From positions 1-64,000 of the forward strand of contig NZ_JAEDAJ010000011.1 of the NCBI RefSeq assembly GCF_016623465.1: DNA of 64,000 nt, in the 5' to 3' direction. Source of the DNA: Brachybacterium halotolerans (GTDB taxonomy: Bacteria; Actinomycetota; Actinomycetes; Actinomycetales; Dermabacteraceae). The notes beneath the pieces were generated by a model. That model was not told the DNA's origin and made no database searches. It worked only from the letters and a program-made list of their open reading frames with translations. Positions within the stretch are counted from its first letter, which is position 1. Each line of letters opens with the position of its first letter. Position numbers and translations under genes: made by a program. Positions 21,086 through 24,360 of the stretch are shown here, piece after piece.

Positions 21086-21843
21086 CGGGCCTCCTCCGTG
21101 CGGTGCGCACGGCCAGCGGACGGGGCGGCGTACGGGTCCTCGGATCCGCGCGCGGCCCACAGAAGTCCGCGCTCGACGATCGTGCGCACACTGGGATCCT
21201 CGAGCACGTCGACGTGGTGGCCGGGGGTCGCGACGAAGATCCGGCCCTTCCCCCACTGGCGGGTCCAGATCGCGGGCGAGGTGATCGGGCGGTTCCACGG
21301 GTCCCACTCCCGCACCTTCTGGGTGGTGGTCGCGAGCACGTCGATGTAGTCGTCGGAGAGCACCCAGTACTGCTCGGTGACCAGGTCGAAGTCGTCCACG
21401 CCGCGGGTGATGGGGTGCTCGGCGGCCGCCGGGAGCATGTTCACGGTGTAGGGGACGTAGTTGTCGTCCTGCTCGCCGCGGCGCTCGTCGGGATGCTTGC
21501 CCGGGTGGCAGCCGAACTGGCCGCCGATGAGGGTGAGGTAGTCCGATTCGCTGCGGTAACTGTCGGCGATGCCGCCGTGCCATCCCGCGAGGCCCGTCCC
21601 GGCCTCGACCGCGGCCCGGAGCCCCTCGAACTGGGGGCGCTCGATCGTGGACATGGTCATGCACTGCACGATGAGGTCGACCCCGGCCATGTACTCGGCG
21701 TCCGCGTAGATCGCGGGACTCTCCTCGATGCGCACCTCGAAGCCGTGCTCGCGCAGGTGGGGGATGAACAGGTCGGTCGCCTCGACGGGCTGGTGCCCGT
21801 CCCAGCCGCCGCGGACGACGAGGGCGGTTCGGGTGGTGGTCAT
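21082..21843 (-). CDS. ThuA-like (trehalose utilisation) domain protein
   Basis: A 253-residue protein with the class I glutamine-amidotransferase-like ThuA fold: ALVVRGGWDGHQP at the start, LAGWHGGIADSY, GGQFGCHPG, and KGRIFVATPGHHVDVLE near the end. ThuA with ThuB-like Gfo/Idh partners takes part in 3-keto disaccharide or glycoside metabolism in rhizobia and Bacteroides. It overlaps both neighbours by 4 bases, so it is tightly coupled to two Gfo/Idh enzymes. The exact reaction is not settled for this family. Confidence 0.9.
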   Translation of the reverse strand: MTTTRTALVVRGGWDGHQPVEATDLFIPHLREHGFEVRIEESPAIYADAEYMAGVDLIVQCMTMSTIERPQFEGLRAAVEAGTGLAGWHGGIADSYRSESDYLTLIGGQFGCHPGKHPDERRGEQDDNYVPYTVNMLPAAAEHPITRGVDDFDLVTEQYWVLSDDYIDVLATTTQKVREWDPWNRPITSPAIWTRQWGKGRIFVATPGHHVDVLEDPSVRTIVERGLLWAARGSEDPYAAPSAGRAHRTEEAR

Positions 21844-23105
21844 CGGGCGGTCTCCTCGGTGGTGGACGCGGCGGGCGCAGTGGACGGGGTGGATGCGGCG
21901 GACGGGGTGGGGCCGACGGCGGTCCAGCGGGAGCCGTCGGCGTGGCTGGCCTCGACGGCGGCCAGCACGCGCTGCACGCGCAGGGCCTCGTCGAAGGATG
22001 GTGAGGGGTCGGCACCCCCGCCGATCGCGCGCACCAGGTCGGCGACCTCGTGGGTGAAGGTGTGCTCGTAGCCCAGACCGTGCCCGGTGGGCCACCAGGC
22101 GGCGGCGTAGGGGTGCTCGGGCTCGGTGGTGAGCACGCGGGTGAAGCCCTGGCGTCCCGCCGGAGCGGTGGCGTCGTAGATCTCCAGCTCGTTCATGCGC
22201 TCGAAGTCGAAGGCGATCGCGCCTCGCGAGCCGTGGAGCTCGATGCGCATCGCGTTCTTGCGCCCCTGCGCCATGCGGGTGGCCTCGAAGGAGCCGAGCA
22301 CGCCGCTCGCGAGGCGCACGGAGAACAGGGCGGTGTCGTCGACGGTGACCCGCCGACGCTCGCCGGCGGCGTCGCCCTTCCCGCCCAGGCCCTGCATCGC
22401 GCCCGCCGCGGGGCGGGTGGGGACCACGGTGGCGAGCGTCCCGGAGACTGCCTCGATCTCCGTGCCGGCGACCCATTGGACGAGGTCGACGACGTGGGCG
22501 CCGATGTCCCCGAGGGCGCCGGAGCCGGCCTTCTCCTTCTCCAGCCGCCAGGTCATGGGGGCGTCGGCGTCGGCCAGCCAGTCCTGCAGGTACTGGGCGC
22601 GGACCTGCCGGATCTCGCCCACGAAGCCCTCGGCGACGAGCTGTCGGGCATACGCCAGGGCAGGGGTGCGGCGGTAGGAGAACCCGCACAGCGAGCGGAC
22701 TCCGCGGACGGAGGCGGCGCGGGCGGCGTCCGCCATCTCCTCGGCCTCCGCCACGGAGTTCGCGAGCGGCTTCTCGCACAGCACGTGCTTGCCGGCTGCG
22801 AGCGCGGCGAGCGCGATCTCCCGGTGGGTGTCGCCGGGGGTGCAGATGTCCACGAGGTCGATCTCGGGGTCCTCGACGAGATCCTGCCAGCGGGTCGTGG
22901 TGGCGGCGAAGCCGAAGCGCTCCGCGGACTCGGCGAGGGTTTCGGGGCGGCGGCCGGCGAGGGTGCGCAGCTCCGGGGTGAGCGGCAGGTCGAAGAACCG
23001 GTGCGCGGTGCGCCAGGCGTGGGAGTGGGCGGCGCCCATGAAGCCGTGGCCGATGAGGCCGACGCGCAGCGGGCGGGAGGACGGGGTGGTCACAGCGGGG
23101 GTCAC
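21840..23105 (-). CDS. Gfo/Idh/MocA-family oxidoreductase resembling levoglucosan-type dehydrogenases
   Basis: A 421-residue protein: LRVGLIGHGFMGAAHSHAW, EKPLANS, FSYRRTPALAYARQLV, YLQDWLADADAPMTWRLEK, GSGALGDIGAHVVDLVQWV. From memory, this run of motifs is close to actinobacterial levoglucosan 3-dehydrogenase and its relatives, which oxidise C3 of a sugar; this is unverified. GTG 23105 is chosen over a start at 23210 because GAGGAG lies directly before it and relatives begin there. First gene of the ThuA/Gfo-Idh set after the peptide gene; the C-terminus is a low-complexity Ser/Thr/Ala tail. Confidence 0.87.
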   Translation of the reverse strand: MTPAVTTPSSRPLRVGLIGHGFMGAAHSHAWRTAHRFFDLPLTPELRTLAGRRPETLAESAERFGFAATTTRWQDLVEDPEIDLVDICTPGDTHREIALAALAAGKHVLCEKPLANSVAEAEEMADAARAASVRGVRSLCGFSYRRTPALAYARQLVAEGFVGEIRQVRAQYLQDWLADADAPMTWRLEKEKAGSGALGDIGAHVVDLVQWVAGTEIEAVSGTLATVVPTRPAAGAMQGLGGKGDAAGERRRVTVDDTALFSVRLASGVLGSFEATRMAQGRKNAMRIELHGSRGAIAFDFERMNELEIYDATAPAGRQGFTRVLTTEPEHPYAAAWWPTGHGLGYEHTFTHEVADLVRAIGGGADPSPSFDEALRVQRVLAAVEASHADGSRWTAVGPTPSAASTPSTAPAASTTEETAR

Positions 23106-23241
23106 GGCTCCTCGGTGAGCGGACGATGGCGGCGGGACGGGTCGGGGACGGGCAGGACGTCGACCGCTGGCGGGCCCCTCGAACCTATCCGGGCCGCCGC
23201 CGGTGGACAACCGGCATGGCCGCGCAGGTCAACGCGCAGAA

Positions 23242-23277
23242 GGACGGGGAGGGCCGCCGCTGCAACCCTCCCCGTCC
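23242..23277. terminator. Perfect 12-bp stem hairpin after the small peptide gene
   Basis: GGACGGGGAGGG, a 12-base loop, then CCCTCCCCGTCC: every arm position pairs. It begins 18 bases past the stop of the small peptide gene (minus strand) and about 135 bases before the Gfo/Idh start. It would isolate the peptide as its own short transcript or partly shield the downstream operon. Confidence 0.7.
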
Positions 23278-23294
23278 GACGGGGTCGGGTGGGG

Positions 23295-23366
23295 TCAGAG
23301 GATGCCGCCGAGGAGGCCGCCGACGACGCCGAGGATCGACTCGAGAAGGCCGGTGACGAGGTCCAT
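23295..23366 (-). CDS. Small amphipathic hydrophobic peptide (23 residues)
   Basis: A 23-codon gene beginning MDLVTGLLESIL and ending GGLLGGIL, net negative (one Asp, one Glu, no Lys or Arg). It is strongly biased to Leu, Gly, Val and Ile with heptad-like spacing, so it would form an amphipathic helix in a membrane. The case for translation: AAAGGA 7 bases before the ATG, a perfect 12-bp hairpin just after the stop, and its own intergenic space of 440 bases with a structured promoter region. It resembles phenol-soluble-modulin-like or other membrane-active micropeptides in character only. Function unknown. It lies between the CUT1 permeases and the Gfo/Idh-ThuA genes on the same strand. Confidence 0.6.
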   Translation of the reverse strand: MDLVTGLLESILGVVGGLLGGIL

Positions 23367-23445
23367 GGTGTGTCCTTTCGCGGGGACGGAGGGATTCCGT
23401 CGCGGACCCACAGCCTCGCGGGGAGCGGGGTCGAAGCTACCGCTC

Positions 23446-23473
23446 GGTCACCGGCCGTGACCCCTTCGTGACC
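23446..23473. promoter_or_regulatory. Repeated GGTCAC/GTGACC elements upstream of the small peptide gene
   Basis: Read on the minus strand, GGTCACG occurs twice with 12-base spacing and is followed by an inverted copy, GGTGACC. A possible -10 (TAGCTT) follows 17 bases later, giving a leader of about 60 bases to the peptide ATG. The arrangement could be an activator/repressor site, or the inverted pair (23446-23461) could form a small terminator for the permease gene ending at 23548. Confidence 0.35.
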
Positions 23474-23547
23474 GGACCGTCCGGCGCCCGGGCGGTGGTT
23501 GACCGCGCCGATCGGCTCCCGCGCGGCGCCTTCCGGCCGGGGACGGC

Positions 23548-24360
23548 TCACTTGCCGGCCCCGGCGGTCATGCCTCCCACGAGGTACCGGCGGCCCAGGG
23601 CGTACAGGACGATGATCGGGATCGAGGAGAGGACCACGGCGGCCATCACCACGGGCACGTTGGTCGCGTACTCGCCCTGGAAGGACCACAGCGCGAGCGG
23701 CAGCGTGCGCTTGTCGGGGCTCTGGGTGAGGATCAGCGGGAACAGGAACCCGTTCCACGACATCAGCGCCTGGTACACGCCCACGGTGACCAGCGCGGGG
23801 CGGGTCATCGGGAAGGCGAGGCGCCACATCTTCTGCCACTCGCTGCAGCCGTCGATGTCCATCGCCTCGAACAGCTCCCCGGGGACGTCGCGCATCGAGT
23901 TGGAGATGATCAGGATGCTCAGCGGCAGGCCGAACGCGATTCCTGGGAGCATCAGCGCGCCCAGCGAGTCGTACATGTGCAGGCGGATGATCAGCAGGTA
24001 GATGGGCACGATGGTCGCCTGCACGGGGATCGCGAGGCCCAGCAGGAACACGCTGCGCAGGGGGCGGGAGAAGCGGCCGGTGGCGCGGACGATCGAGTAC
24101 GAGGCCATGAAGGCCATGAGCACGAGCGGGATCACCGTGCCGAGTGCGACGAGCACGCTGTTGGCCAGGTACATCCCGAAGTCGGCCTCGAGCACGGCGG
24201 TGAAGTTCTCGAACGCGAGCGCGGCCGAGGGCAGCACGGGGTTCGAGCCGAAGTACGTCGAGATCGACTTCAGGCTCGTGATCCCCACGAAGTAGATGGG
24301 CAGCAGCACGAGCAGCAGCCAGAGCCAGCCGAAGGCCCCTCCGATCCAGTTCCTGCGCAT
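23548..24360 (-). CDS. ABC sugar transporter permease, MalG type
   Basis: A 270-residue permease with about six membrane helices. The EAA loop is VPGELFEAMDIDGCSEWQK, and the end YLVGGMTAGAGK is the usual family terminus. It begins 3 bases after the stop of the upstream MalF-type permease. Third gene of the binding protein-permease-permease operon, and no ATPase gene follows. The associated sugar is unknown; the neighbouring Gfo/Idh-ThuA genes suggest a glycoside or anhydro-sugar. Confidence 0.92.
   Translation of the reverse strand: MRRNWIGGAFGWLWLLLVLLPIYFVGITSLKSISTYFGSNPVLPSAALAFENFTAVLEADFGMYLANSVLVALGTVIPLVLMAFMASYSIVRATGRFSRPLRSVFLLGLAIPVQATIVPIYLLIIRLHMYDSLGALMLPGIAFGLPLSILIISNSMRDVPGELFEAMDIDGCSEWQKMWRLAFPMTRPALVTVGVYQALMSWNGFLFPLILTQSPDKRTLPLALWSFQGEYATNVPVVMAAVVLSSIPIIVLYALGRRYLVGGMTAGAGK

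What the first reader, a model, noticed from the sequence alone, without database searches (positions are those of the whole stretch)
23295..23366. Unannotated-size 23-residue amphipathic peptide gene
It has a ribosome site, a perfect 12-bp hairpin after the stop, a structured upstream region and a Leu/Gly/Val/Ile helix with one Asp and one Glu. It lies alone in a 440-bp spacer inside the unknown-sugar locus. Candidate membrane-active micropeptide or transporter partner.
Basis: partly seen in the sequence, partly recalled or inferred. Interest (0 to 1): 0.65.

Follow-up and report, generated by a model that had tools for sequence, protein, structure and literature searches.

The report
Conserved 23-residue amphipathic peptide gene
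A Brachybacterium genome carries what looks like a real but tiny gene, with its own promoter region and terminator, for a 23-residue helix that is greasy on one side and glycine-rich and acidic on the other; it is kept in a few related species, sits at two different places in the genome, and probably works at the cell membrane.

Summary
Minus strand 23366-23295 encodes MDLVTGLLESILGVVGGLLGGIL* behind a ribosome site, with an exact 12-bp hairpin after the stop. It is the only one of 229 ATG ORFs of 15-40 codons in the window with both such a site and at least 75% aliphatic/Gly residues. Intact copies occur in 5 of 38 genomes of the genus (Brachybacterium, via B. subflavum), a decayed one in a sixth; none in 9 other family genomes or outside the genus in order and class samples. 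Every residue change is D/E or I/L/V; leader, frame and hairpin form the conserved core. In the four variants the Gly/polar residues fill one 160-degree helix face (135 of 200,000 shuffles do as well). One species has the unit at another locus, and related genomes lack it at both places, which speaks against an obligatory transporter partner or attenuator leader. Best reading: a stand-alone, accessory, membrane-interface micropeptide, perhaps under MtrA/GlnR-type control. Expression, export and target are untested.

The parts
23446..23472 (-). promoter-region box GTCAC-N6-GTCAC-N5-GTGAC (MtrA/GlnR-type direct repeat with 11-bp period plus an inverted half-site)
   Evidence: direct repeat present in own, G026, G017, G011 and as GTCAC-N6-GTAAC in G035 (read); consensus from passages of papers
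23434..23439 (-). possible -10 element TAGCTT (TAACTT in G026, TAACGT in G035; CAGCTC in G017)
   Evidence: read from the sequence; inference, not found by the promoter scan
23385..23401 (-). leader hairpin GACGGA-ATCCC-TCCGTC before the ribosome site; in G058 GGCGGA/TCCGCC, one pair changed on both sides
   Evidence: present in the single-strand fold, read; the four-sequence consensus fold prefers another pairing, so the hairpin is uncertain
23373..23378 (-). Shine-Dalgarno AAAGGA, 6 nt before ATG
   Evidence: also in G058, missing in G011
23295..23366 (-). 23-codon ORF, MDLVTGLLESILGVVGGLLGGIL*
23242..23277 (-). terminator-like hairpin, 12 exact pairs; one compensatory G-C to A-U change in G035, one A-C mismatch in G026
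23182..23210 (-). separate promoter-like site of the downstream dehydrogenase, TTGTCC-17-TAGGTT
   Evidence: read from sequence; kept in G026 and G017, weaker in G035; inference, not called by the scan
21840..23105 (-). Gfo/Idh/MocA-family dehydrogenase, downstream neighbour (start read by eye)
23548..24360 (-). ABC permease (BPD_transp_1), upstream neighbour

Best explanation
A genuine, monocistronic, accessory micropeptide gene. Shown by comparison: leader, ribosome site, frame and hairpin are conserved as one block, and the block is present or absent independently of its neighbours and found at two loci. Inferred: it is transcribed from its own promoter region carrying an MtrA/GlnR-type box, ended by the hairpin, and translated into an acidic peptide (net -2) without a signal peptide. 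On contact with lipid it folds into one amphipathic helix whose hydrophobic face (L/V/I/M) enters the membrane interface, while the Gly-lined face (G6, G13, G16, G17, G20, G21, with D2, T5, E9, S10) allows close packing of helices into oligomers. It would act on the membrane itself (own or, if exported, a neighbour's) in the way phenol-soluble modulins or membrane-type small toxins do, rather than as a dedicated part of the adjacent sugar transporter.
For: Orthologues of 100, 96, 87 and 74% identity. own-G058: 12 of 72 nt differ, 8 at codon position 3, 4 at position 1, 0 at position 2; 6 residue changes, all D/E or I/L/V (P 0.005 for no non-conservative change when the same substitutions are placed at random). 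Four-species identity per 20-nt bin is 0.80-0.95 from the leader to the start of the hairpin, against 0.25-0.75 upstream of it. Gly/polar arc of 160 degrees in the four variants, 135 of 200,000 shuffles of the window peptide as narrow; hydrophobic moment 0.315 against a shuffle mean of 0.121, 0.07% of 20,000 shuffles as high. Unit absent from the same gap in 10 of 15 genomes and, at the G058 site, from both other genomes where the flanking pair was found (G015, G019).
Against: No expression, ribosome or mass data exist here. The number of residue changes is not lower than random (P 0.24 for G058, 0.91 for G035, 0.08 for G017), so the coding case rests on the conservative kind of change plus kept start, ribosome site and frame; the residue groups were set with the data in view and the three comparisons share changes. 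Four-fold sites of the ORF are more conserved than those of the permease for own-G035 (18/18 against 101/149, P 0.0015) but not clearly for own-G026 (P 0.10) or own-G017 (P 0.40), which leaves room for an RNA-level role. Counting Gly as part of the polar face was a choice. No exporter or immunity gene was recognised among the neighbours given to Pfam. The gene has decayed in G011, so it is dispensable there.
Confidence: 0.5

Rival explanations
1. A small membrane protein that binds and tunes a host membrane protein (a small regulatory subunit), not necessarily the neighbouring transporter; its Gly face docks on a partner helix.
For: Length, hydrophobicity and GxxxG spacing (G13/G17/G21, G16/G20) suit helix-helix docking (sequence). 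Near-invariant residues suggest a specific partner. Lies among sugar-uptake genes in the window.
Against: Not linked to one transporter: absent from 10 of 15 permease-dehydrogenase pairs, and in a transketolase-dehydrogenase gap in G058.
Confidence: 0.22
2. Membrane toxin of a type I toxin-antitoxin module, silenced by an antisense RNA.
For: Under 60 residues, hydrophobic, possible membrane helix; accessory and relocated; ORF unusually conserved at silent sites in one of three comparisons.
Against: No Lys/Arg, whereas cationic residues are listed as a usual feature (passages of PMC8309996, which also name exceptions). No antisense gene recognised; no promoter-like site on either strand, a weak test because the scan also misses the plausible gene promoters.
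Confidence: 0.13
3. Leader ORF: translation of the peptide controls read-through of the hairpin into the dehydrogenase gene (attenuation), or the conserved entity is a regulatory RNA and the peptide is incidental.
For: Order leader - ORF - hairpin - gene, with a dehydrogenase of one superfamily following at both loci. Seven Leu codons with Leu-Leu pairs (sequence). Leader CCCUCCGUCC can also pair with the hairpin 5' arm (read from sequence; GC-rich, chance likely). The consensus fold of four species pairs leader with ORF and part of the ribosome site; one pair outside the hairpin shows a change on both sides.
Against: The dehydrogenase has its own promoter-like site after the hairpin, also in genomes without the ORF (TTGACC-17-TATAAGTT in G007; G019 and G058 share TTGACAC) (read). 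Substitutions keep residue type. The downstream gene is a sugar-type dehydrogenase, not a leucine gene. Rfam finds nothing in the window at gathering scores. Most pairs of the consensus fold never vary, so they prove nothing.
Confidence: 0.12

Closest known systems
Phenol-soluble modulins of Staphylococcus (including LspU, PMC12607899, passages seen)
   Same: very short amphipathic helix with hydrophobic and polar faces opposed; lack of a signal peptide (recalled for the modulins)
   Different: no family match; no Lys; polar face mostly Gly; Actinomycetota; no Pmt/AbcA-type exporter sought or identified; separate transcription unit in a sugar-catabolism gap
Membrane-type type I toxins (Fst, TisB, Ibs and others; PMC8309996, passages seen)
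   Same: size, hydrophobicity, possible membrane helix, scattered accessory occurrence
   Different: no cationic residues; no antisense partner recognised
Gly/Leu-rich frog-skin peptides (plasticins recalled; bombinin H2 a weak profile match, E 7.3)
   Same: similar length and Leu/Gly composition, GxxxG spacing
   Different: eukaryotic secreted peptides; the match is not significant, so an analogy only
MtrA / GlnR binding sites of Actinomycetota (PMC12323332, PMC6265350, PMC10704036; passages seen)
   Same: direct repeat GTnAC with 11-bp period (GTCAC-N6-GTCAC) in the promoter region
   Different: binding not tested; here an extra inverted half-site; motif imperfect in G058

Membership tests
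Phenol-soluble modulins | short amphipathic helix with opposed hydrophobic and polar faces | tested here: met
   (computed on an ideal helix; no structure predicted or solved)
Phenol-soluble modulins | sequence membership of the staphylococcal families | tested here: not met
   no Pfam-A or NCBIfam match at E 10; the profile's full-length matches are all in one genus. A 23-residue query is weak for such searches, and whether these libraries hold each modulin family was not checked
Phenol-soluble modulins | export through Pmt/AbcA-type transporters | not testable with these tools
   export needs experiment; candidate exporters were not searched
Type I toxin-antitoxin | hydrophobic peptide under 60 residues with a membrane helix | tested here: met
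   23 aa, GRAVY 1.70; membrane helix inferred from composition
Type I toxin-antitoxin | cationic residues, generally at the C-terminus (exceptions known) | tested here: not met
   no K/R/H in any of the four variants (criterion)
Type I toxin-antitoxin | antisense RNA antitoxin | tested here: inconclusive
   no promoter-like site on either strand of 23050-23620, scan too strict
Attenuator leader peptide | constant association with the regulated operon, without a separate promoter for it | tested here: not met
   pair present without the ORF; dehydrogenase promoter-like site after the hairpin (by eye)
Subunit of the adjacent sugar ABC transporter | co-occurrence with the transporter genes | tested here: not met
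   10 of 15 permease-dehydrogenase pairs lack it, including the one in G058, which carries the peptide gene elsewhere
MtrA/GlnR regulon | GTnAC-N6-GTnAC in the promoter region, conserved | tested here: met
   window 23457-23472 (0.39 expected by chance in 64 kb, 31 of 100 shuffles had one, so not significant alone), kept in own, G026, G017, G035, G011; imperfect in G058
MtrA/GlnR regulon | binding and regulation | not testable with these tools
   needs gel shift or expression data; the mtrA and glnR genes of this genome were not looked up

The most novel reading that the evidence does not exclude
A relocatable micro-cassette (promoter region, 23-codon gene, terminator; about 230 bp) spreads among Brachybacterium intergenic gaps and makes an exported, phenol-soluble-modulin-like helix of a new chemical type, acidic with a glycine-lined face, switched on by the envelope regulator MtrA. 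It would be an actinobacterial surfactant or competition peptide with no known sequence kin.
Probability: 0.18. Interest if true: 0.68.

Novelty: new member of a known kind. Interest (0 to 1): 0.5.

Why it matters
Genes this short are easily missed by annotation. Here comparison of genomes alone makes a good case for one of 23 codons, with a clear chemical pattern that invites a cheap synthetic-peptide test, and with natural plus/minus and decayed species as built-in controls. If membrane activity is confirmed it would add an acidic, glycine-faced helix to the catalogue of bacterial membrane-active peptides and suggest that such genes can move as minimal transcription units.

Tried and rejected
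Transporter partner and attenuator: disfavoured on presence/absence and synteny. Known RNA family: no Rfam match in the window at gathering scores. Known protein family: no Pfam or NCBIfam match at E 10; the PDB profile search gave two insignificant matches, E 3.4 and 7.3. Phage or plasmid origin: no relative confirmed in viral contigs (18 pattern matches, none confirmed) and no plasmid match (a short, simple query that BLAST's filter may mask). Wider relatives: the order sample (396 genomes) gave 5 full-length matches, all in the genus; the other listed matches at E up to 0.5 are partial or lie in long frames.

A regulon by the full three-part box: only its own site and a 2-mismatch overlap of itself. 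Leader shared with an ABC solute-binding gene in the same genome (G000 contig 19): 43-nt similarity, but no comparable small peptide there. Sequestration of the ribosome site by leader RNA: the long stem of the single fold is, read by eye, not kept in G035 or G058; the short GUCC/GGAC pairing of the consensus fold is invariant in the four close species, which is uninformative, and its partner differs in G058. An off-frame translation of L015 gave nonsense; the ORF was read from the DNA and later confirmed by script.

Literature: the listings (which show only the best of many papers, e.g. 8 of 178 and 12 of 924) showed no paper on this peptide, for three stretches of its sequence, found none in the held open library. 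PMC12889095 was opened (passages) because it names Brachybacterium; its abstract does not list that genus among the inhibitory bacteria. An earlier count said six solute-binding proteins near the box; the count is five. No structure prediction was run.

Full report
What is there. The minus strand at 23366-23295 reads MDLVTGLLESILGVVGGLLGGIL*. AAAGGA precedes the ATG by six bases; 17 bases after the stop codon a hairpin with 12 exact pairs begins. The gene lies in a 442-bp gap between an ABC permease and a Gfo/Idh/MocA dehydrogenase, all on the minus strand; further upstream lie a second permease, a solute-binding protein and a ROK-family protein. Among 229 ATG ORFs of 15-40 codons in the window, this is the only one with both a ribosome site and at least 75% LIVMGAF (criteria set after the fact).

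It is conserved. A protein search of 58 relatives gave three strong matches besides its own (100, 96, 87%). A DNA search of the 38 genomes of the genus added G058. In that search all 38 genomes had some match at E 10 or better; I count only those that cover the unit (own, G026, G017, G035, G011, G058), the rest being short pieces. A profile search of the same 38 genomes gave five full-length matches. So 5 of 38 carry an intact copy (33 of the 38 genomes are at least 90% complete and at most 5% contaminated). The sixth, G011, has the same gap and recognisable flanks, but the stretch with ribosome site and start is gone and a second stretch is missing inside the frame, leaving a remnant that ends ...VTGLVGGLLGGIL. 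The profile gave no full-length match in 9 other genomes of the family, none outside the genus in the order sample of 396 (E up to 0.5), and only the window's own genome in the class sample of 394 (E up to 0.02). That scan compared 51 pattern matches and confirmed one; it may leave out very near relatives.

It looks coding. Between the window and G058, 12 of 72 bases differ: 8 at third, 4 at first, 0 at second codon positions, and all 6 residue changes are D/E or I/L/V exchanges; placing the same substitutions at random gives no non-conservative change with P 0.005 (0.04 for G035, 0.006 for G017). Against this, the number of residue changes is not clearly below random (P 0.24, 0.91, 0.08), and the comparisons share changes. 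By position, the block from leader through ORF to the start of the hairpin is 80-95% identical in four species per 20-nt bin, and the region upstream of it 25-75%; the hairpin loop bin is 60%, its 3' arm 90%, and the bins after that 45-93%. Four-fold sites of the ORF are 18/18 identical between own and G035 against 101/149 in the permease (P 0.0015); for own-G026 P 0.10, own-G017 P 0.40. The RNA may thus carry constraint of its own. The consensus fold of four sequences has 53 pairs, of which 2 show a change on both sides, one in the hairpin (G035) and one in a leader-ORF pairing; the hairpin also has G-U exchanges and one mismatch (G026): consistent with a structure, not proof.

The chemistry is unusual. 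On an ideal helix, T5, G16, E9, D2, G20, G13, G6, G17, S10 and G21 all fall within 160 degrees, everything else being L, V, I or M; 135 of 200,000 shuffles do as well, and the three other variants have the same arc. Hydrophobic moment 0.315 against 0.121 for shuffles. G13/G17/G21 and G16/G20 are at glycine-zipper spacing (sequence). The peptide has no cationic residue.

It is an independent unit found at two places. Of 30 dehydrogenase loci fetched I compared the 27 closest (the three left out are 52-56% identical paralogues). In 15 of the 27 the permease was found beside the dehydrogenase; in the other 12 it was not within the fetched flank. The gap, measured from the permease to the first aligned dehydrogenase residue and so approximate, is 434 nt in the four species with the intact gene, 328 in G011, and 17-257 nt without the gene in the other 10. 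In G058 that pair has a gap of about 50 nt and no peptide gene; its copy lies between a transketolase gene and another Gfo/Idh/MocA gene. At that second place the gap is 151 and 108 nt, without the gene, in the two other genomes where the flanking pair was found (G019, G015; the other 27 of the 30 loci showed no transketolase in reach). At both places the unit lies before a promoter-like site of the dehydrogenase (by eye). Whether this is transfer or gain and loss is open; flanking repeats were looked for by eye only and none was recognised. That both downstream neighbours are dehydrogenases of one superfamily is curious and could be chance or could mean a link that I miss.

Regulation, a lead. 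The promoter region holds GTCAC-N6-GTCAC followed by GTGAC, with the direct repeat kept in five of the six species (one half-site GTAAC in G035) and imperfect in G058. This fits published MtrA sites (GTAACC-N5-GTAACC, PMC12323332; degenerate repeat in PMC6265350) and a GlnR box (GTnAC-n6-GTnAC, PMC10704036), all seen as passages. In the window's genome GGTMACG-N4-GGTMACG with up to one mismatch occurs 22 times (4 exact; the count includes the peptide's own site and two overlapping sites) against 7 for the reversed control. I looked at ORFs around all 22 and gave 10 proteins from 9 loci, picked by eye, to Pfam: five solute-binding proteins, one transglycosylase-like (Rpf-type, name recalled) protein, one sodium:solute symporter, one CHRD protein, one YflT protein and one without match. 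Other sites lie inside long frames. The selection was not blind.

What it most likely does. A real gene: about 0.9. A peptide acting at the membrane on its own: about 0.5. A partner of some membrane protein 0.22, a type I toxin 0.13, leader or regulatory RNA 0.12. Shown: conservation, structure of the unit, presence/absence. Inferred: transcription, translation, membrane binding, regulation. Not known: export, target, benefit.

Novelty. No protein family matched, no significant structure match, and no paper in the held library holds three stretches of its sequence. As a kind of thing, a short amphipathic bacterial peptide, it has known company; as a sequence family with an acidic, glycine-lined face in Dermabacteraceae (family name recalled) it appears undescribed in what I could search.

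Noticed in passing
L040 (G000 contig 19, 19736-19779): A 43-nt stretch before an ABC solute-binding protein gene resembles the peptide gene's leader and ribosome site (86%), ending in the same GAAAGGACACACCATG.
   Followed up: partly
L105 to L126 (own genome): GGTMACG-N4-GGTMACG sites, 22 against 7 in the reversed control, five near solute-binding protein genes and one before an Rpf-like transglycosylase gene: a possible MtrA/GlnR regulon in Brachybacterium.
   Followed up: partly
L045 5010-5260 and L079 (G011): Remnant of the peptide gene: promoter box, leader and hairpin kept, ribosome site and start lost, a second internal stretch missing; the hairpin tail is richer in T.
   Followed up: yes
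L081 and L083 (G007, G029), upstream of the dehydrogenase: A strong promoter-like TTGACC...TATAAGTT followed by a palindrome-like stretch, alike in two species (by eye); a possible operator for the sugar locus.
   Followed up: no
G027, G011, G021, G032, G018, G007 and six more genus genomes: The profile's positions 1-16 match weakly (E 0.03 to 0.57) inside long frames of 384-1086 codons in 12 genomes of the genus; whether these frames are one family was not checked; probably chance likeness to a hydrophobic segment.
   Followed up: no
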